Source: an uncultured Synergistales bacterium
GTDB lineage: Bacteria > Synergistota > Synergistia > Synergistales > Aminobacteriaceae
Assembly (NCBI GenBank): GCA_905233565.1
Contig: CAJOCL010000002.1
Location: 1-42,017 of the forward strand
Direction: 5' to 3'
Length of the DNA: 42,017 nucleotides
In this document: in pieces, positions 3,100 to 41,553 of the stretch
Layout of the letters: every line of letters begins with the position of its first letter
How positions within the stretch are numbered: position 1 is the first letter of the stretch
Program-made: the position numbers and the translations under genes
The notes under the pieces: model-generated
Told to the model about the DNA's origin: nothing
Databases searched by the model: none
Seen by the model: only the letters and a program-made list of their open reading frames with translations

Positions 3100-4677
3100 T
3101 TAACTGTCCATAGACAGCCATTCATTGACGAGCGTCGCAATCTCTTCAGGATGGCTCTTAGCGTATGCCTTGAGCTGTTCCTCAAGCACCGCCATTTCAC
3201 CCTGAAACGCCAGTAAATCAGGTGATGTAAGCATTTCCTGTATAGTCGGAACTTTCTTCCCTTCCGCTTCGATCTCTTCAACCGCGAGCCTTGCCCTCTT
3301 GACCCTAACCCAAGCATAGAGCGCACCGAGAACTACAAGGAGCAGTATAACGGCTGCCGTAGTCCCGTAAATCAAACGCCACATTCTGTCCTGTCTTAAC
3401 TGTTCGGCCATTGAGTCAGCAAATGCCGTCGAGAATCTCATCGCCCTTACGACAAGGCTGTCTCCCCTGTCCTTGTTGAAGCCTATCGCTGAAGATATAA
3501 CTTCCTGCAGTGCCTCGAGCCTTTCATCATTTATTTCGTTGTACTTGTCATCAATGAGAACGGAGGCTGATAAACGCCTGACACCGCCGGGCGTTACAAC
3601 CTGATCGCCTTTCCTTGTCGTAATTTCATAATTAGTCGTTGAATTAGTCCTGTTATATTCGCTCTGCACCGTCGTTGAGTTTATCGCGTAGCCGGGAATA
3701 TTCGTTGTTGTTCCGGGATTTCCGTTTACGGGGTTTCCCTGACCGGTATAACTTTCTTCCTGACGCTCATTGCTTCTCGGCACTCCTACGCCTGTATCAG
3801 GGTTCGGCGAATATTCAACGTATGAATTTGTGCGTTTGTCAAAATCTAAATCTATTCTCACTCTTACTACCGCAGTGCCGGGCCCGTAAACCTGTTCAAG
3901 CATTGCACGGACTTTATTTTCAAGTTCGCGCTCGTGCTGGCGTTCAAGTTCGCGCTGAACTGACGTTACAGTATTAGTGCCGTCAGGGTTGTACATTATC
4001 ATGCTGTCCGCAACCATGTCCGACAAAATACGGCCGTTCGTGTCAACAACCGTAACTGCATCAGGTTCAAGACCGTCAACCGAATGAGCCACTAAATGAA
4101 TTATTGATTTTACCTGTGTCGGGCCTATCGTTGCACCCTGACGCAATCTCAACAAAACAGAAGCTGTTGAAGGCTTCTGCTGTTCAAGAAATAATCTTTG
4201 CTCAGGGATTACGACACTTACTCGGGCATTTTCAACCTGCGACATCTGTGAAATTGTCCTCGCAAGTTCTCCTTCTATTGCCCTAGTGTATGCTATTCTC
4301 TGCTGAAATTCGCTCATTCCCATAGCTGAGTCGTCAAAAATTTCAAATCCTGTCGTCCCGCCCTTCGGAAGTCCGAGCTGCGCCAATGCGAGCCTCGTTT
4401 CATAGACTGCACTGCCCGGCATTAATATTGCGTTTGCTTTCGGATCTAACCTGTAAGGGATGTTATTTTCTTTAAGATAATCTACTATTGCCGCCTGATC
4501 ATTTACTTCAAGCCCGGCATAAAGAGGCTCGTAACTCGTGCTTCCTGTCATGAAGATTAACGCTCCGAGACCGCCTAAAACTAAAAAAACTGACAGGACT
4601 ATTGACGCTCTCTGCCAAAGTTTCAGAGAACCCCAGAAATTCAGGAACGAGGCGAACCAGCGTCTTAAACTGTCCAT
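3100..4677 (-). CDS. fliF: Flagellar MS-ring protein FliF
   Basis: FliF builds the MS ring in the inner membrane and is the first platform of the flagellum. The 525-residue protein has an N-terminal membrane helix at about 25-45, ring-building motifs (the conserved stretch LAQLGLPKGGTTGFEIFD near 95-112; PSTASVLLRL near 168-177), a Gly/Asn/Thr-rich variable loop in the middle (about 285-350), and a second membrane helix near 435-458. The C-terminal tail is the part that binds FliG in the family. The start is ATG 4677, eight bases after the fliE stop. All expected parts are present and length is normal. Confidence 0.97.
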   Translation of the reverse strand: MDSLRRWFASFLNFWGSLKLWQRASIVLSVFLVLGGLGALIFMTGSTSYEPLYAGLEVNDQAAIVDYLKENNIPYRLDPKANAILMPGSAVYETRLALAQLGLPKGGTTGFEIFDDSAMGMSEFQQRIAYTRAIEGELARTISQMSQVENARVSVVIPEQRLFLEQQKPSTASVLLRLRQGATIGPTQVKSIIHLVAHSVDGLEPDAVTVVDTNGRILSDMVADSMIMYNPDGTNTVTSVQRELERQHERELENKVRAMLEQVYGPGTAVVRVRIDLDFDKRTNSYVEYSPNPDTGVGVPRSNERQEESYTGQGNPVNGNPGTTTNIPGYAINSTTVQSEYNRTNSTTNYEITTRKGDQVVTPGGVRRLSASVLIDDKYNEINDERLEALQEVISSAIGFNKDRGDSLVVRAMRFSTAFADSMAEQLRQDRMWRLIYGTTAAVILLLVVLGALYAWVRVKRARLAVEEIEAEGKKVPTIQEMLTSPDLLAFQGEMAVLEEQLKAYAKSHPEEIATLVNEWLSMDS

Positions 4678-22871: not shown

Positions 22872-25800
22872 TTATTTCTTAACGGCAATCGCAGGAGAAT
22901 ATATTACCCCTTTATTGAGCCAGGCAGAAACGGTTATTTTTCGTTTTTCAGGAACGTTGAAAATCTCCTCGCCCGTCTCACCGTCATAGAACTCTGCAAT
23001 CTCATCATCACTTGACGATTTACCGTCCTCAGGGTTAGCAAGCCAGATTAATTTTGCCCCGACAGAAACATCGTTGCTTAATTCAGCGTCAAAGTCATAC
23101 ATTCCAGAAACATCTACGCTTATTTCAGGCAGAACGTAAACTACAGAATCGTATTCCTGTTTTGTTACGGTACTTGAACTTTCATTATTTGTTGCCGGTA
23201 CAGCTGACTTTATGGCCGTTTGAGTGCCTGCCGTGTTTGCCGTACCTGCAGTTGATGTTGATGTCGGTGCTGCTGACGATGTTTTTAGTGCCGGTGCAGA
23301 CGCTGACTTGACGCTTTTAGTCTTAGGGTCAACAACTGAGAGTGTGAAAGTTTTTGATGTATTGCCTATTGTGTTTGAGGCCGTTACCGTAACCGTATAA
23401 CTCCCTGTAGCCTTCGGGGTGCCTTTGAAAGTCCCTGAACTGAAAGTTATACCGCTCGGAAGTTTCCCCGTAACTTTCCATTTAATTGTCTTAGTTCCCG
23501 TTGCGGTCAGTCTTGAACTGTAAGATTTCGACAAAGTTGCAGATGAGAGTGAAGATGTCGTTATTTTCGGTGAAGTCATAGTTTTTATGACGATCTTCCT
23601 CGTTGCCTTGCCGTCAGCATTTGCAGCCGTTATCGTTATGTTTGTTGTTGAATCTTTCGCCGGAGCCTTTCCCGTCAGTTTGGCCGTGTAATCTCCCGTC
23701 TTCGTCAGCTTAAATCCGCTCGCACCGCTCATGGTAAACGTTATGTTTTTCGTTCCGTTTACTTTGAAGTCTATTTCTATATTGCTGTTGACTTCTTTTG
23801 TTAATGTCGTTGTAGCCGCTGAAGGTGTCGTGAATTTAGGCTTTGTTCCCGTAACGGTAAAATTGACTTTTCGTGTTACCCCGCTTGATGACACTGAATT
23901 TTTAGCAGTGAACGTTATCGGCAGTGATTTAATTGAAATAGTCGGAGTACCCGTTATTTTCGCCGTACCGTCAGAAGGATTAGCGGTAAACGTAAGCCCT
24001 AAATCCGAAAGGCTGCTTATGCCGAATTTAGCTTTATCTGATGCAGATATGCTGTAAGAAATCGTTATCGGCTTAGTTCCTGTTGCTGAAATTTTGCTTC
24101 CTGAGTACGAACTTCCTGCCCTTGCGTTTGCAAGCGTGGCCGTAAGTTTAGGTGCAACGCCGTTTACGGTGAGTGTCAATGTTTTTTCCGTTGAACCTGC
24201 CGAGTTAGTCAGGGTAAATTTAACCGTATACTTTCCTGCTTCAGTCGGAGTTCCCGTTATCGTTGCAGTTGCTCCCGTTGAAACCTGCGAAAATTTCAGG
24301 GTGCTTGGAAGTCCCGTTACTGTCCATTTTATATTTGCCGATCCTTTTGCCGAAAGTTTAAGCGAGTACTTTTTATCAGTTGTAGCTGCCGTGAGTGATT
24401 TTGTTGACAACGTAGGCTTCTGTACGACCGTAAGAGGGACTTTTAAAGTTGCCTTTCCTGCTGCGTTCTTGGCCGTAACAGTCATAGTGAATTTTCCTGC
24501 TTTTGTCGGAGTTCCTGAAAGAATCCCGGAACTTGACATTTTCATTCCTGAAGGCTGGCCGGATATTGACCACGTAATCGGGGTTGTTCCGTCTGAGGCC
24601 GTGAATTGAACGCTGCTGTATGCTTCACCCATTACAGCATCTTTCAGAGTTCCGGGCGAGGCTATGACGGGCGGACGGGCTTTTATAGTTAGCTTGAGAG
24701 TTTTTGTTACGGGCTTTTTGTCAAGCTGAGTTGCTATGTTCTCGGCGGTTATTTTTACGGTGAAAGTTCCTGCTGCTGCCGGCGTTCCGCTCATGTAAAC
24801 GGTGCTTTTTGTCAAAGACAGGCCGCTGGGAAGTCCCGTAACCGTCAGGCTTATCGGTGCCGTTCCCGTAACGCTTATTGCCTGTGAATAAGCATAACCT
24901 ACAGTGCCGATTTTCAGGCTTGAAACGTTTATAACGGGCTTTACGGGCTTTGTGTTTATCGTGAATTTAACCGTTCCCGTTGACGTTCCCTGCGATGTTA
25001 CGGCATTGAATGAGACATTGTAAGTCCCTGCTTTTGTCGGCTTTCCTGAAATTAAGCCGGATGATTTGTTTAACGATAACCCGGCGGGCAGTGAGCTTTT
25101 CGCCGTCCATGTTGCGGAAGTGCTGGGCGTTAATTGAAGTTTCTGGCTGAACGAGTAGCCTACATAACCCGTTAATTCAGTCGTGCTTATAACAGGCATG
25201 TCATAAACATCAATAGTGTAACTCTTTGAGGCTGATCCGTAAGAGTTTGTGACTGTTATTGTGAACGTATAACTTCCTGTTGCTGTCGGTGTCCCTGAGA
25301 TTGAACCCGTTGAAGTGTCAAGGCTTAAACCTGAAGGAAGGCTCCCTGCTGTCAGTGCCCATGTCATCGGCGTAGTTCCTGTTGCTGCAACGTATGAGCT
25401 GTAGGACTTCTTCAAATAACCGCTTGGGAGGCTTGATGTGTTTATTCTCGGCGCAACTCCTGAAACTGAGCCTGTAACTGTGAAGGCTTTTACACATGCG
25501 TTTATGGCCTTGCTTTCCCCCGTTGTCCAGTTTTGGCCGTTAGACGAAAAGAAACTGCCCTTATCTATAACAGCGTTGTCAGTAAAACCATTATTAGTTT
25601 TCATTTCAACTGCTGTAGTTGTATATCCTTTGAACCTTACGACAACTGAAAAGTATTCGCCGTTGGAAAGACTTACGGGAGTATTAAGAGTTATTGTGTG
25701 ATAACCTGCGAATGCTATTGATCCTGACTGAGTACTCAATGATGTTCCGCCTGAAGGGATCGGGCTTGATGAAGGCATTGCCGACATTCCTGCGTAAACG

Positions 25801-27017
25801 TTGATTTCGTAATTAATATTATTATCAGGAGTGTAGAACGCTACTTCGGTGAGTGTCTCATTTCTAGTGGCCCTGAAGACGTTAGCAAAATATATATTTG
25901 ATGCTCCGCTCGTATATCCCCAGTGTCCGCTCCAGCCCAGAGCGTCATAATAATATGCCTTCATTGATGAGTCTGCATCTTCAACAACGAACGCGCTTCC
26001 GTCAGTCAGTTTCTGTGCGTATGACATCCAGAAGTAGCCGTTATCTCCCCATGATGTACCCCATGAATTTTTTATCAGCCACGCGCCGTCAATACTGGGC
26101 TGACTTCCGCTCTTGAAGTTGCTTCTTGAATAGCTGTCGTCCCAGCCGACTATCTGTACTGCGTGGTTAGTTGTTGCGCTGTTTTTGTAATAATAATTTG
26201 TGCCTTTTGATGACTTGTAATAAGACGAATCATCGCTGTAATAACTGGCAACTACTGCACCGTTTGCTATTATGCGGTCTTTTACGATGTTTCGTGCTGA
26301 TGATGATTCGTTGACGTTTTTGTTGTCACCGAAACCAAGATAGAAAACATCTCGCAGCCTCAAAACTCTTGTGTAACTGTCGGGCGTACTCTTTGAGGGC
26401 TGTGTAGGATACGGGACTTCAGTCTCATTTGCCGGGCCTGATAGACGCGAGAATAACGCCGTAGGATAGAATGAATTTCCGCCATGATTCATGACATCTG
26501 CAAAACTTTTACTGTTCATGTTATCGAAGGCCGCTGATGCCGTTGAATTTCTGAACGCAAACCAAGCAAGGTGCATTTCTGAAAGGTCAAGGGCTGATTT
26601 TCCCTGCATTAAGTAATTGCTTTCCATTGCGCCGATTGCCGCATGTGCCCAGCATGTTCCGTAAGGATTTTGATTTTTTATGCTTGTAACATAACTCTTT
26701 CCGCCTACGCTGCGAAGGTCATACGCTGATACTGCCTTTCTGTTCGGAACAGGCGATGTTGTTTCAACAGGAGGATTTGACGCGAGGTGCGACAGGTCAA
26801 TCGGAATCGGAATATAACCGTTCTTAAATGATGATGACGATGAAGATGATGATTTTCTTGTTATTACTGAAGATGAGGATTTTTGCTCTGCCTGCCATTG
26901 GAGGAACTCAGGTGAAAGCGGCTTAAATCCTGATTCTGCGGCCTGTGCCATTGCCGAATGAATTACGAGAAATACTGCAATGAGCAATGAATATCTGAAA
27001 ATTTTCCGCATTGTCAT
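22872..27017 (-). CDS. Secreted papain-family (C1A) cysteine protease with eight Ig-like repeats
   Basis: The 1381-residue protein has a signal peptide (FRYSLLIAVFLVIHSAMAQA), a Ser-rich linker (about 47-63), and a C1A peptidase domain at about 97-345 with a complete catalytic set: Gln116 and Cys122 in NQNPYGTCWAHAA, His285 in TNHAVQIVGWDD, and Asn317 in WLIKNSWGTSWGDNGYF. A beta domain (about 350-510) follows, then eight tandem putative-Ig (He_PIG-like) repeats from about 525 to 1240, each with a version of LPSGLSLDTSTGSISGTP. A Ser/Thr/Ala-rich linker leads to a last beta domain; there is no Synergist-CTERM tail. Either ATG 27017 or ATG 27011 could start it. It is convergent with the other giant secreted protein. 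Likely role is surface or extracellular protein digestion or adhesion; the target is unknown. Confidence 0.88.
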   Translation of the reverse strand: MTMRKIFRYSLLIAVFLVIHSAMAQAAESGFKPLSPEFLQWQAEQKSSSSVITRKSSSSSSSSFKNGYIPIPIDLSHLASNPPVETTSPVPNRKAVSAYDLRSVGGKSYVTSIKNQNPYGTCWAHAAIGAMESNYLMQGKSALDLSEMHLAWFAFRNSTASAAFDNMNSKSFADVMNHGGNSFYPTALFSRLSGPANETEVPYPTQPSKSTPDSYTRVLRLRDVFYLGFGDNKNVNESSSARNIVKDRIIANGAVVASYYSDDSSYYKSSKGTNYYYKNSATTNHAVQIVGWDDSYSRSNFKSGSQPSIDGAWLIKNSWGTSWGDNGYFWMSYAQKLTDGSAFVVEDADSSMKAYYYDALGWSGHWGYTSGASNIYFANVFRATRNETLTEVAFYTPDNNINYEINVYAGMSAMPSSSPIPSGGTSLSTQSGSIAFAGYHTITLNTPVSLSNGEYFSVVVRFKGYTTTAVEMKTNNGFTDNAVIDKGSFFSSNGQNWTTGESKAINACVKAFTVTGSVSGVAPRINTSSLPSGYLKKSYSSYVAATGTTPMTWALTAGSLPSGLSLDTSTGSISGTPTATGSYTFTITVTNSYGSASKSYTIDVYDMPVISTTELTGYVGYSFSQKLQLTPSTSATWTAKSSLPAGLSLNKSSGLISGKPTKAGTYNVSFNAVTSQGTSTGTVKFTINTKPVKPVINVSSLKIGTVGYAYSQAISVTGTAPISLTVTGLPSGLSLTKSTVYMSGTPAAAGTFTVKITAENIATQLDKKPVTKTLKLTIKARPPVIASPGTLKDAVMGEAYSSVQFTASDGTTPITWSISGQPSGMKMSSSGILSGTPTKAGKFTMTVTAKNAAGKATLKVPLTVVQKPTLSTKSLTAATTDKKYSLKLSAKGSANIKWTVTGLPSTLKFSQVSTGATATITGTPTEAGKYTVKFTLTNSAGSTEKTLTLTVNGVAPKLTATLANARAGSSYSGSKISATGTKPITISYSISASDKAKFGISSLSDLGLTFTANPSDGTAKITGTPTISIKSLPITFTAKNSVSSSGVTRKVNFTVTGTKPKFTTPSAATTTLTKEVNSNIEIDFKVNGTKNITFTMSGASGFKLTKTGDYTAKLTGKAPAKDSTTNITITAANADGKATRKIVIKTMTSPKITTSSLSSATLSKSYSSRLTATGTKTIKWKVTGKLPSGITFSSGTFKGTPKATGSYTVTVTASNTIGNTSKTFTLSVVDPKTKSVKSASAPALKTSSAAPTSTSTAGTANTAGTQTAIKSAVPATNNESSSTVTKQEYDSVVYVLPEISVDVSGMYDFDAELSNDVSVGAKLIWLANPEDGKSSSDDEIAEFYDGETGEEIFNVPEKRKITVSAWLNKGVIYSPAIAVKK

Positions 27018-35937: not shown

Positions 35938-36981
35938 ATGATTAAGTTTGAAACTGATTATCAGGAAGGTGCATCGCCGGAAATCTTAGAGCGTTTAGTG
36001 AAGACTAATTTTGAACAGACTTCAGGATACGGCGAAGATTCACACTGTCAGCGAGCAAAGGAACTTATACGGAAAGAAATTAACAGGCCGAATGCAGCAG
36101 TTTACTTCATGGCCGGAGGAACTCAGACAAATACAACGGTTATAAAGCATTTTTTAACGCCTTGCGAGGGTGTTATAGCCGTAAATTCAGGTCATATAAA
36201 CGTACATGAATCGGGCGCAATCGAGGCAACAGGCCATAAAGTTATCGCCCTTAACGCTCATGACGGCCTGCTTGATGCAGAAGATTTAAGGCTTTACCTT
36301 GAGGCTTTTTATGCTGATCCGACACATGAACACATGGTACTTCCCGGCATGGTATATATTTCTTACTCTTCAGAACTTGGGACGCTGTACAAAAAATCAA
36401 TGCTTCAGGAAATAAAATCAGTATGCAGTGATTACGGGCTGAAGCTCTTTATTGACGGTGCGAGGCTCGGAGCGGGCTTAATGTCGGACAGCTCCGACAT
36501 GACAATGCAGGACATTGCAGGCTTATGCGACGCGTTTTACATCGGCGGAACGAAAACGGGCGCACTTTTCGGCGAGGCCGTAATCTTCCCTGAGCCTGAA
36601 AAAGCTAATCTCAAACAGTTTACTACGCTGATAAAACAGCAGGGCGGATTGCTTGCAAAAGGGCGGCTCTTGGGGATTCAGTTTGAAGTTTTGTTTGAAG
36701 ACGGATTGTATTTCAGGAATGCAAAACACGCAGATATTCAGGCCATGAAGATTAAGAAGGCTTTTTCTGAAGCAGGAATAAAATTTTTGATTGACTCGCC
36801 GACAAATCAGCAGTTCCCGATTTTGACGCGTGAACAGCATGAAAAGTTATCATCAAAATTCAGCTATGAAACTTGGCAGCCGTTAAATGACGGGAATATT
36901 GCCGTAAGATTCTGCACAAGCTGGGCAACAACTGATTATAATATAGACGAATTAACAAGGGCAATTAAGGAGTTAAAATGA
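35938..36981 (+). CDS. Low-specificity threonine aldolase-type PLP enzyme
   Basis: This fold-type I PLP enzyme of the beta-eliminating lyase family most likely splits threonine (or allo-threonine) to glycine and acetaldehyde. In 347 residues it shows AAVYFMAGGTQTNTTVIKHF near 54-73, the AVNSGHINVHESGAIEATGHKV segment near 83-104 in two parts, the cofactor aspartate in LFIDGARLGAGL near 167, and the PLP lysine in YIGGTKTGALFGEA near 201. AAGGAG lies about 15 bases before ATG 35938, a long spacing. It overlaps valS by three bases. The sequence cannot separate L- from D- or serine-type specificity. Confidence 0.87.
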   Translation: MIKFETDYQEGASPEILERLVKTNFEQTSGYGEDSHCQRAKELIRKEINRPNAAVYFMAGGTQTNTTVIKHFLTPCEGVIAVNSGHINVHESGAIEATGHKVIALNAHDGLLDAEDLRLYLEAFYADPTHEHMVLPGMVYISYSSELGTLYKKSMLQEIKSVCSDYGLKLFIDGARLGAGLMSDSSDMTMQDIAGLCDAFYIGGTKTGALFGEAVIFPEPEKANLKQFTTLIKQQGGLLAKGRLLGIQFEVLFEDGLYFRNAKHADIQAMKIKKAFSEAGIKFLIDSPTNQQFPILTREQHEKLSSKFSYETWQPLNDGNIAVRFCTSWATTDYNIDELTRAIKELK

Positions 36982-39653
36982 CTACAAGAAAACGGAACAG
37001 AAATTTAGACAAGAGTTATTCACCGGACAATATAGAACAGAAATGGTATTCAGAATGGCTTGAACACGGCCTCTTCAACGCTGAAATAAGCGCGGATAAA
37101 GAGGCGTTTTCGATCGTAATTCCGCCTCCTAACGTTACGGGTTCCCTGCATGTCGGCCATGCGTTCGATCATACGTTTCAGGATATTATGTGCCGTACAA
37201 AGCGTATGGAGGGTTACAGCGTCTTATGGCTTCCCGGGACTGACCACGCAGGAATCGCAACTCAAAACGTTGTTGAAAAGGACTTGGCAAAAAAAGGAAT
37301 ATCACGTTACGATCTCGGGCGCGATGAGTTTGTAAAAAAAGTCTGGGAATGGAAAAAAGTTTACGGCTCCCGGATAATCGAACAGATGAAGAGGCTCGGA
37401 AATTCCTGCGACTGGAGGCGAGAAAGATTCACGCTTGACGAGGGGTTATCACGTGCCGTCAGAGCCGTATTCGTAAGGCTTTACAAGAAGGGCTTAATAT
37501 ACAGGGGAAAATACATTGTAAACTGGTGTCCGCGCTGTGAAACGGCAATTTCAGACCTTGAAGTCGAATACGAGGACAAACAGGGTAAATTCTATTATGT
37601 GAAATACCCGTTAATTGAGACTGACTGCGAGGAAAAATACATACTTGTTGCGACGACGCGCCCGGAAACGATAATCGGCGATGTTGCTATAGCCGTTCAC
37701 CCGCGTTCAGAAAAATACAGGCACTTAATCGGTAAACATGTAAAAGTGCCGTTAACTGAACGAATAATCCCCATAATCGAAGATAACATGGTTGACCCTG
37801 AATTTGGTACGGGCTGCGTAAAGATTACGCCGGCTCATGATCCGAATGATTTTCTTGTCGGCTTAAATCACAATCTCGAACAGATACAGATTATTGACGC
37901 AAAGGGAATAATGAACGATAAGGCCGGAAAATATCAGGGAATGACAATCGAACAGGCACGCAAAGAGTCAGCGAAAGACTTGGAAGAACTGGGCCTGCTT
38001 GTCAAAACTGAAGACATAACCCACTCGGTCGGACACTGCCAGCGCTGCGGGACAACAGTAGAGCCGTATTTATCTGAACAGTGGTTCGTAAAGACAAAGC
38101 CTCTTGCAGAACGCGGAGTGCAGGCAGTTAAGGACGGGCGTATAAAATGGGTTCCCGAACAGTGGGAAAAAACGTATTTCAACTGGATGGAAAATATACG
38201 GGATTGGTGCATTTCCCGTCAATTATGGTGGGGACACAGAATCCCGGCTTGGGAATGTAAGGACTGCGGACACATAACGGTTGCAGAGATTGACCCGACG
38301 GAATGCGAACACTGCCACAGCAAAAATATTGAACAGGAAAGCGATGTCCTTGATACGTGGTTCAGCTCTGCTCTTTGGCCGTTTTCAACAATGGGCTGGC
38401 CTGACGACAAGCCGGAACTGAAGTATTTTTATCCGACTTCATTAATGGTAACGGGCTTTGACATAATATTCTTCTGGGTTGCGAGAATGATTATGATGGG
38501 TCTTGAGTTTATGGACGATGTACCGTTCAGGGATGTTTATATACATTCTCTTATACGTGACGAACACGGCAAGAAGATGAGCAAGACTAAAGGCAACGTT
38601 ATAGACCCGTTAGTAATGATTGACAAGTACGGAGCTGATGCGCTCAGAATGACGCTCGCCGCTTTATCAGTTCAGGGACGGGATATACTGCTGTCGTCAA
38701 CAAGAATCGAGACTTACAGATTTTTCATGAACAAACTTTGGAACGCCTCACGCTTTGCGCTCATGAATCTTGATGACGAAGTAAGAGATATTGACCTTTC
38801 ACAATTACAGCTTCATGATAAATTCATTTTGACGCGTACTCAGGAAATGGCAAAGAGTGTCAGAGAATTGATAGATTCTTACGACATCGGAACGGCTGCA
38901 AGGGGTCTTTACGATTTTGTCTGGGGGGATCTCTGCGACTGGTACGTTGAGATGAGCAAGCCTGCATTGAAGGGCGATGAGGGTGAAGACAGAAAGAAAA
39001 CAACTCAGGCTGTCCTTGAACATGTATTCAAGACAGTTTTGCCGCTGTTGCACCCGTTTACGCCGTTTATTACTGAAGAGTTGTGGGCTGCGTTCGGTTT
39101 CAACGATGATTACATTATGAAAACTTCATGGCCTGAACCTGTAAGAGATTATATTTTTGAGGGCGTTAATGACGACATGAAGGTATTGCAGGAGACTGTG
39201 AGGGTTCTTCGTAATCTCAGGGCGGAAGCACACGTTCCGCCTCAGCAGAAGTTAAGCCGTGCCGTAATCCGTGTCAGTTCGGGAACAAAGGCCGCTGAAA
39301 TTCTGAAAGCGTCATTAAATCAAGTCTCAAACCTCTGCAAAATCAATGATGTAATTCTTGAAGAACCTTCGGGCGGATGGACATACGGGCCTTCACTTTC
39401 AGGAGTTGCGGGTGAAGCTGAGGTTAAATTACCGGTAGGAGATGTCCTCGATGTTCCGAAGGAAATTGCGAGGCTTGGACAGGAAATTTCAACGCTTGAA
39501 AAGAATATCGCCTCAAGTCAGGCCAGATTGAATAATAAGGATTTTGTTTCACGGGCTCCGGCTGAAGTTGTCGAGAAGGAACGCTTAAAAGTCTCAGAAG
39601 GTCAGGCACAAATTGAAAGATTGAGGGCAAATCTTGAAAGTTTGAGCAGGTAA
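36978..39653 (+). CDS. valS: Valyl-tRNA synthetase
   Basis: ValS charges tRNA-Val and edits mischarged threonine. The 891-residue class I enzyme has the HIGH motif as HVGHAF in IPPPNVTGSLHVGHAFDHTF (about 48-67), the TDHAGIATQ loop, the editing-domain ATTRPETIIGDVAIAVHP segment, a zinc-like pair of cysteine motifs (WECKDCGH and TECEHCHSKN), the KMSKS motif as KKMSKTKGNVIDP near 532, and a C-terminal coiled-coil arm (about 825-890). All functional parts are intact and length is normal. Its ATG shares bases with the aldolase stop (ATGA). A stem-loop starts six bases after its stop. Confidence 0.97.
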   Translation: MTTRKRNRNLDKSYSPDNIEQKWYSEWLEHGLFNAEISADKEAFSIVIPPPNVTGSLHVGHAFDHTFQDIMCRTKRMEGYSVLWLPGTDHAGIATQNVVEKDLAKKGISRYDLGRDEFVKKVWEWKKVYGSRIIEQMKRLGNSCDWRRERFTLDEGLSRAVRAVFVRLYKKGLIYRGKYIVNWCPRCETAISDLEVEYEDKQGKFYYVKYPLIETDCEEKYILVATTRPETIIGDVAIAVHPRSEKYRHLIGKHVKVPLTERIIPIIEDNMVDPEFGTGCVKITPAHDPNDFLVGLNHNLEQIQIIDAKGIMNDKAGKYQGMTIEQARKESAKDLEELGLLVKTEDITHSVGHCQRCGTTVEPYLSEQWFVKTKPLAERGVQAVKDGRIKWVPEQWEKTYFNWMENIRDWCISRQLWWGHRIPAWECKDCGHITVAEIDPTECEHCHSKNIEQESDVLDTWFSSALWPFSTMGWPDDKPELKYFYPTSLMVTGFDIIFFWVARMIMMGLEFMDDVPFRDVYIHSLIRDEHGKKMSKTKGNVIDPLVMIDKYGADALRMTLAALSVQGRDILLSSTRIETYRFFMNKLWNASRFALMNLDDEVRDIDLSQLQLHDKFILTRTQEMAKSVRELIDSYDIGTAARGLYDFVWGDLCDWYVEMSKPALKGDEGEDRKKTTQAVLEHVFKTVLPLLHPFTPFITEELWAAFGFNDDYIMKTSWPEPVRDYIFEGVNDDMKVLQETVRVLRNLRAEAHVPPQQKLSRAVIRVSSGTKAAEILKASLNQVSNLCKINDVILEEPSGGWTYGPSLSGVAGEAEVKLPVGDVLDVPKEIARLGQEISTLEKNIASSQARLNNKDFVSRAPAEVVEKERLKVSEGQAQIERLRANLESLSR

Positions 39654-39659
39654 GAAAAT

Positions 39660-39681
39660 CCCCCAGCCTTAAAACTGGGGG
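39660..39681. repeat. REP-like stem-loop after valS, sharing loop with the stem-loop at 31374-31400
   Basis: CCCCCAG (39660-39666) and CTGGGGG (39675-39681) form a perfect 7-bp stem around CCTTAAAA. On the minus strand the loop reads TTTTAAG and an ATTTTC tail follows, as in the stem-loop at 31374-31400. On the plus strand no U tract follows, so it is not a classical valS terminator. It marks the left edge of the R-M pair. Confidence 0.5.
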
Positions 39682-39693
39682 CTAATTATAGGT

Positions 39694-40561
39694 ATGTTCA
39701 ACGATATATTGAAGATAATAGATAGTTCAAAAGGCAGAAATTTTTATGATGTCTGCGGACTATTAGAGGCGTTAATAAGCTCTGATAAAAATTTTAATGA
39801 TATTCTCCGCCAAATTAGGAACAATCCCTGAAAGCATATCGCATGACTCAGCTGAAGAAAAATTATTTTCTAAGGCTTCAGATATGGTTTTGTCCCGTGC
39901 ATTCAGAGAATTAGGGCTGAAATCAGCAGTTTTGCATGAACGCGGAGATTCGGCAGACGTTACCGCTGAATCAAGAATACACGGCTATACGTTTGTTGCT
40001 GATTCAAAGGCTTTCAGACTGAGCAGGACGGCAAAAAATCAGAAAGATTTTAAGATTTCAGCATTGTCAAGCTGGAGAAAAGATAATGATTATGCCGTTT
40101 TATGCTCTCCGTATTTTCAGTATCCGGCGAAATCGAGCCAGATATACGCGCAGGCACTTTCAAGTAATGTATGTCTTTTCAGCTGGGAACATTTAATCTT
40201 CATGCTTGATAATCACGTGAGAGAAACAGCAGAGTTAAATTTTTCAGAAATATGGAATTTCAGCAGTAATTTTTCACATAAAGTTCTGGTCTCTGATATG
40301 AAGAGAAATTTTATGCTTGATTTCAGCAGTTTTTTGGCTGAATTTCTAAATATTGACGCTGAAATATTTAATGCTTCGCTGAAAGAGCAAATATCATGCC
40401 TCATCAATCGAAGCCGTATTGAAAAAGATTTCTGGATTGATAAAATTAAAATCATAAAGAATTATTCACGCGAACAGGCAGTGAACGAGCTTATAAACTC
40501 GCTGAAAATCAACGAGAAACTAAACCAGATTAATACATATATCAGGAGCATATCACAATGA
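39694..40561 (+). pseudogene. HindIII-like type II restriction endonuclease, frameshifted near its N-terminus
   Basis: The catalytic ORF (39797-40561, 254 aa) is recognisably homologous to HindIII (cuts at AAGCTT): EEKLFSKASDMVLSRAF, the PD-(D/E)xK site with Asp54 and D69-S-K71 in FVADSKAFRLSRTAKNQKDF, NDYAVLCSPYFQYP, LFSWEHL, and RSRIEKDFWIDKIKIIKNYS. The HindIII N-terminal helices are found in another frame as a 45-residue ORF at 39694-39831 (FNDILKIIDSSKG ... NFNDILRQIRNNP). Removing one A from the AAA run at 39812-39814 joins the two as ILRQ-LGTIPES and gives 288 residues, close to the 300 of HindIII. So either a 1-base insertion has broken the gene, or there is a sequencing error. The isolated catalytic ORF might still be translated. 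The methyltransferase overlaps by four bases. Base composition is more AT-rich than around it. Confidence 0.85.
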
Positions 40562-41470
40562 AACTTGATGTATTAATTCACGGCAATTCGATAGAAATAT
40601 TGAAAACATTTCCAGAAAGTTCAGTACATGCAATAATCTCTGATATACCGTACGGAATCGGCTGCGATGAATGGGACATACTGCACGACAACAAAAATTC
40701 TGCATACGGCGGAGCTTCTCCTGCACAGATTTCCGGCGGTGGCCTGTTCAAACGCAGAGGGAAACCGTTAAACGGCTGGAGTGATGCAGACAAAAACATA
40801 CCGCGTGAGTATCAGGACTGGTGCATGTCATGGGCCTCTACATGGCTTAGAGTTTTGAAACCCGGCGGAACGTGCTTTATTTTTGCCGGAAGGCGTTACG
40901 CGCACAGGTGCATTACGGCTCTTGAAGATTCCGGCTTTACGTTCAGGGATATGCTTGCATGGGAAAAAGATAACGCCCCTTACCGTGCGCAGAGGCTTTC
41001 GTCAATATATGAACGCAGGAGTGATACAGAAAACGCTGAAAAGTGGCAGGGCTGGAGGGTTGCGAACTTGAGGCCGCTTTTTGAGCCTATATTATGGTTT
41101 CAGAAGCCGTACAGAACTGGAGGAACTATTGCGGACAACGTAATAAATTATGAGCTGGGTGCATGGAATGAGCAGGCCATAACAAAGTATAATATTCGTG
41201 ATGATAACAGCAATATCCTGAAGGTTAAGACCTCACAGAACGATCATGGCCTTCATGTTGCCCAGAAGCCTTTGAAACTCATGGAGCTGTTAATTTCTTT
41301 GGTTACAACTGAAGGACAGATTATTAGACCCTTTTATGGGTTCCGGCACTGTATGTACAGCCGCAAAAAATCTCAACAGACATTACATCGGAATAGACAT
41401 AGAGGCTTTGAATATAGCGACAGCCGAAGAAAGATTAAATACGGCTTTTCAATGTGAACTTGCACTGTAA
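40558..41470 (+). pseudogene. M.HindIII-like adenine-N6 DNA methyltransferase, frameshifted before motif I
   Basis: The product resembles M.HindIII, a beta-class N6-adenine methyltransferase that protects AAGCTT. Motif IV is ISDIPYG (Asp29-Tyr32 form of DPPY), followed by GCDEWDILH, RRGKPLNGWSDADK, RAQRLSSIYERR, and RPLFEPILWFQKPYRTGGTI. In the uninterrupted frame (to 41457, 299 aa) the protein ends in nonsense after EGQI. The next frame, from about 41327 to a TAA at 41468-41470, encodes the AdoMet-binding motif DPFMGSGT, then NRHYIGIDIEALNIATAEERL. Removing one base near 41320-41326 restores QILDPFMGSG and a 303-residue protein, close to M.HindIII. As it stands, the AdoMet motif is lost and the enzyme should be inactive. 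Confidence 0.87.
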
Positions 41471-41509: not shown

Positions 41510-41553
41510 AAAAATTAATCCCCTCTCTAAAAATTTCAGGAGAGGGGCTTTTA
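41510..41553. terminator. Bidirectional terminator between the R-M pair and the AEC transporter
   Basis: CCCCTCTC (41520-41527) and GAGAGGGG (41540-41547) form a perfect 8-bp stem with a 12-base loop. CTTTTAT follows on the plus strand and TTAATTTTT on the minus strand, so it can end transcripts from both convergent sides. Confidence 0.8.

What the first reader, a model, noticed from the sequence alone, without database searches (positions are those of the whole stretch)
39694..39835. HindIII-like nuclease split by an apparent one-base insertion, with its N-terminal domain left in another frame
The catalytic frame begins abruptly at GTIPES, yet a 45-codon frame directly upstream aligns with the N-terminal helices of HindIII. 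The switch point falls in an AAA run (39812-39814); deleting one A fuses ILRQ to LGTIPES, as in HindIII (VRSIGILPE). HindIII homologues are uncommon, so a diverged one in a Synergistota-like genome is of interest by itself. Possible explanations are slippage mutation, programmed frameshifting, an active short form, or sequencing error.
Basis: partly seen in the sequence, partly recalled or inferred. Interest (0 to 1): 0.78.

Follow-up and report, generated by a model that had tools for sequence, protein, structure and literature searches.

The report
Recently broken HindIII-type restriction-modification pair
A gut or rumen bacterium carries a close relative of the HindIII DNA-cutting enzyme and its protective methylase, and both genes have recently been knocked out of frame; this is ordinary decay of a known kind of defence system, not a new one.

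Summary
A 45-codon frame (39694-39831) encodes the N-terminus of a HindIII-family endonuclease, and the catalytic part lies in the next frame (39779-40561). In six same-genus relatives the two are one uninterrupted gene, 41-71% identical to the window's N-terminal part and 67-76% to its catalytic part. The extra base does not lie in the AAA run; alignment puts it just downstream, at 39817.

Its AdoMet-binding motif I (DPFMGSGT) is in another frame at about 41320-41324. In 71.7 kb of homology-covered sequence on this contig, these are the only two frame breaks. Relatives show the whole decay series: intact R-M, broken R with intact M, lone M, and a 40-residue fossil after valS. About ten of 83 R homologues are broken, at varied places.

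Best explanation: a real, recently inactivated type II R-M pair. All four pieces are still about as conserved as in intact relatives. Programmed frameshifting is unlikely: relatives have no shift site, and a +1 slip at the CCC_UGA present would replace near-invariant residues. Sequencing error cannot be excluded without reads. HindIII homologues are not uncommon (284 loci).

The parts
36978..39653 (+). valS (valyl-tRNA synthetase), intact upstream neighbour; the R-M pair follows valS in G000, G011, G023, G041 and, as a remnant, G026
39660..39681 (+). terminator-like hairpin CCCCCAG...CTGGGGG between valS and R
   Evidence: sequence; single copy in the window
39694..39831 (+). N-terminal part of the HindIII-type endonuclease (45 codons, of which 41 homologous), ends at TGA
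39815..39819 (+). place where the reading frame changes (one base more than in relatives, at 39817)
   Evidence: comparison with six intact relatives
39826..39831 (+). CCC_TGA ending the N-terminal frame; a known type of +1-slip site, here probably incidental
   Evidence: PMC5009743
39779..40561 (+). catalytic part of the endonuclease (open from 39779, first ATG 39797, homology from 39818); PF09518; D..D-S-K motif
40558..41457 (+). N6/N4 adenine-type DNA methyltransferase, N-terminal and middle part (homology to about 41319, then out-of-frame tail)
41320..41324 (+). frame change in the methyltransferase (two bases fewer than in relatives), just before motif I
41324..41470 (+). C-terminal part of the methyltransferase with motif I LDPFMGSGT, in the other frame
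41520..41547 (+). terminator-like hairpin CCCCTCTC...GAGAGGGG after the methyltransferase
   Evidence: sequence

Best explanation
The locus is a HindIII-type type II restriction-modification pair (order valS - R - M) that has recently been inactivated in this lineage by small insertions or deletions in both genes. The R frame ends after 45 codons, before the catalytic domain. The M frame leaves the protein sequence just before AdoMet-binding motif I. Neither should give an active enzyme. Because an active R without M would cut the host's own AAGCTT sites, R was probably lost first or at the same time, with M following once no longer needed. Shown: both frame breaks, intact relatives, conservation of all pieces, decay series in the genus. 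Inferred: loss of activity, order of events, AAGCTT specificity.
For: R and M are single uninterrupted frames in six same-genus genomes. The genus shows graded decay: R broken with M intact (G035, G021), M alone (G009, G020), and R residues 1-20 next to M residues of motif I after valS (G026). In the window both breaks lie in R-M and none elsewhere in 71.7 kb of contig C2 that has homologous reference proteins. The pieces remain conserved: of columns invariant in relatives, the window departs at 0/11 (R N-part), 10/130 (R catalytic), 1/145 (M N-part) and 1/24 (M C-part), within the range of the relatives or just above it, so the lesions are recent. About ten R homologues of 83 are broken at other places, usually with M intact. 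No other close relative of this M is in the genome. Orphan methylases next to degraded REase genes are a known outcome (PMC6471742).
Against: No reads were available, so a base-calling or assembly error is not formally excluded. The recency of the lesions, with no accumulated damage, fits an error as well as a recent mutation. The catalytic frame has its own ATG (39797).
Confidence: 0.8

Rival explanations
1. Sequencing or assembly error in a metagenome-assembled genome; in the cell both genes are intact and the R-M pair works.
For: All four pieces are still conserved; AAGCTT is strongly depleted (3 seen, 59 expected in 200 kb), as in genomes with intact systems; draft genome of 34 contigs.
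Against: Two errors in one 1.8-kb operon and none in about 70 kb of other homology-covered coding sequence; if two errors fell at random, both landing here would have a chance of about (1.76/71.7) squared = 0.0006. Neither site is a long homopolymer (three A at most). AAGCTT depletion is equally strong in G026 (fossil) and G040 (no system), so it does not show present activity.
Confidence: 0.14
2. Expression through +1 ribosomal slippage: the R N-terminal frame ends in CCC_UGA (39826-39831), a known +1 shift site, with AGGA 5 nt upstream, and M has CCC_U (41329-41332) at its break; low-level slippage would make both full-length proteins.
For: Both breaks need a +1 shift and both carry CCC_U in register (read). 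CCC_UGA is used for +1 shifting in Listeria phages, and the review PMC5009743 gives figures of 15% and, for Salmonella, 1.9% at this site.
Against: All six intact relatives are in one frame and need no shift. The slip product would read QIRNNPES for QIGTIPES, losing a Gly (68/69) and an Ile (68/69), and in M would lose the motif I Asp (73/73). L020 has an independent break in the same segment of opposite sign. A cognate tRNA-Pro(GGG) is present and CCC is not rare (8.2 per 1000).
Confidence: 0.04
3. The short catalytic frame (from ATG 39797) is itself an active nuclease without the N-terminal helices.
For: The frame has an ATG upstream of the homology and keeps the D..D-x-K residues.
Against: The N-terminal part is present in 68 homologues judged intact by length; no Shine-Dalgarno-like sequence before 39797; without a working M, an active nuclease would attack the host; the invariant Ala in D-A-K (69/69) is Ser here.
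Confidence: 0.02

Closest known systems
HindIII restriction-modification system (R.HindIII, PDB 2e52; Pfam PF09518; H. influenzae locus L066)
   Same: R catalytic part matches HindIII over residues 46-292 (E=3e-73); R accompanied by an N6/N4-type methylase, and the intact relative's M (G041) is 62% identical to the one found in the H. influenzae locus
   Different: Both genes are out of frame in the window; the D-A-K motif reads D-S-K; specificity not shown
Intact HindIII-type R-M pairs of the same genus (G023/L112, G041/L111, G011/L097)
   Same: Same place after valS, 73-76% identity in the R catalytic part, 81-82% in the M N-part
   Different: Single uninterrupted frames for R and M
Orphan methyltransferases left by degraded R-M systems (Seshasayee et al., as cited in PMC6471742)
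   Same: Same kind of decay; seen here as G035, G021, G009, G020
   Different: In the window the methyltransferase is broken too

Membership tests
HindIII endonuclease family (PF09518) | Profile match above the curated cut-off | tested here: met
   197.1 bits against cut-off 25.3, profile 45-283 of 285
HindIII endonuclease family (PF09518) | N-terminal region contiguous with the catalytic domain in one frame | tested here: not met
   In another frame in the window; contiguous in relatives
HindIII endonuclease family (PF09518) | PD-(D/E)xK catalytic residues | tested here: met
   SADV...FVADSK keeps D, D and K; the x (Ala in 69 of 69) is Ser
Functional type II R-M system recognising AAGCTT | Adjacent methyltransferase with motif I and the catalytic motif in one frame | tested here: not met
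   Motif I DPFMGSGT is in another frame
Functional type II R-M system recognising AAGCTT | Cleavage and methylation of AAGCTT | not testable with these tools
   Needs protein or native DNA; AAGCTT depletion (3/59) is genus-wide and not diagnostic
Programmed +1 ribosomal frameshift gene | Frame change with its shift site conserved among relatives | tested here: not met
   All six intact relatives are in one frame

The most novel reading that the evidence does not exclude
Both genes are made at a low level by +1 slippage at CCC_U sites, so that the pair is a throttled, leaky R-M system rather than a dead one.
Probability: 0.03. Interest if true: 0.6.

Novelty: new member of a known kind. Interest (0 to 1): 0.22.

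Why it matters
Alone it is one more broken restriction enzyme. With its relatives it gives a readable series, within one genus, of how a HindIII-type system dies (R broken, M alone, both broken, fossil), which lets the order of loss be tested. It also warns against reading single-genome frame breaks as programmed frameshifts.

Tried and rejected
AAGCTT counts as a sign of present activity: rejected, because depletion is as strong in genomes without the system. Search for the same junction in viral contigs: nothing. Lack of a cognate tRNA-Pro as a cause of slippage: rejected, because GGG, TGG and CGG anticodons are all present. Phase variation by simple repeats: rejected on sequence, since neither site has a repeat tract long enough. 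Relaxed selection on old pseudogenes: no clear sign. No structure prediction was run, because HindIII has solved structures.

Full report
Observation. The window holds a 45-codon frame at 39694-39831 and, one frame on, a frame open from 39779 to 40561 (first ATG 39797). The second frame is a HindIII-family endonuclease: PF09518 at 197 bits from profile position 45, and phmmer E=3e-73 to HindIII chain residues 46-292. The first frame has no Pfam or HindIII match on its own, but against same-genus HindIII relatives its residues 1-41 match the missing N-terminus at 41-71% identity. It is therefore the N-terminal part of the same gene.

Place of the frame change. Six intact relatives read (R/K)QIGIIPE.

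The neighbour is broken too. The next gene (40558-41457) is an N6/N4 methylase (PF01555). Its last part, with motif I DPFMGSGT, lies in another frame from 41324 to 41470. Relatives have two bases more at this place. No other close relative of this methylase is present in the genome; the only other match is 27% identical over 60 residues, E=6e-4.

Error or biology. With proteins from relatives as references, 71.7 kb of the first 200 kb of contig C2 could be checked; the only two frame breaks are these two. Two random errors would both fall in this 1.76 kb with a chance of about 0.0006 (own calculation). This favours real mutation of the operon, but reads were not available.

Age. Of columns invariant in relatives, the window departs at 0/11 (R N-part), 10/130 (R catalytic part), 1/145 (M N-part) and 1/24 (M C-part), with pN/pS like that of the relatives; the R catalytic figure is at the upper end of the range of intact genes (0.077 against 0.015-0.078). 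Against a wider set of homologues the R and M N-parts have no more never-seen residues than intact genes; the short M C-part has 3 in 38, which may be a first sign of relaxation. Two near-invariant positions are changed: D-A-K to D-S-K in R and GSGTT to GSGTV in M. The lesions are recent.

Relatives. Nine of 43 genomes of the genus, the window's own included, match PF09518. Six have intact R and M. G035 and G021 have a broken R and intact M; G009 and G020 have M without a detectable R; G026 has only R residues 1-20 followed by M residues around motif I, directly after valS. The order valS-R-M is shared by G000, G011, G023 and G041. A scan of 84,980 species genomes gave 284 loci. Of 83 loci surveyed, about ten have a broken R, at varied places; one (L020) also has the N-terminal part in another frame, but through a lesion of opposite sign. 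Some of these may be assembly errors too.

Mechanisms considered. Programmed shifting: the R frame ends in CCC_UGA, a known +1 shift site (PMC5009743), and M has CCC_U at its break. But relatives need no shift, the products would lose near-invariant residues, a cognate tRNA-Pro(GGG) is present, and lesions elsewhere are unrelated. Active short form: no start signal, the N-terminal part is near-universal, and with M broken an active nuclease would harm the host.

AAGCTT. The HindIII site is strongly depleted in this genome (3 seen, 59 expected in 200 kb), but equally so in G026 and G040, which lack a working HindIII-type system. It points to a long history of restriction in the genus (inference), not to present activity. 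Specificity of this enzyme is inferred from homology only.

Source.

Verdict. A real but ordinary finding: a recently inactivated HindIII-type R-M pair, confidence 0.8; sequencing error 0.14; slippage 0.04; active short form 0.02.

Noticed in passing
G000:C2:1-200000 and 80-400 kb each of G041, G042, G035, G026, G040: Extreme avoidance of many six-base palindromes across the genus (AAGCTT, GAATTC, GATATC, GACGTC, GGCGCC, often under 10% of expectation; 31-45% of palindromes below 0.3) and of some asymmetric hexamers (GACGCC, CCCGAG, AGCGCC, GAGCCC), while other hexamers are near 1. No genome outside the genus was run as a control.
   Followed up: partly
L108 (G026:C37:136800-141500), about 981-1102: A fossil of the R-M pair after valS: R residues 1-20 next to M motif I residues, the rest deleted.
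   Followed up: partly
L106 (G009) and L107 (G020): Lone HindIII-type methylases without a detectable nuclease gene; candidates for orphan AAGCTT methylases.
   Followed up: no
L020 about 3880-4010: A Lachnospiraceae genome with its HindIII N-terminal part in another frame through an independent lesion.
   Followed up: partly
L071: R intact but one stop inside M: a combination that should be harmful unless an error or a second methylase is present.
   Followed up: no
window 22872-27017 (-): A 1381-aa secreted protein with a papain-like protease segment (GTCWAHA ... NHAVQIVGWDD) followed by many Ig/cadherin-like repeats, read from the sequence only.
   Followed up: no
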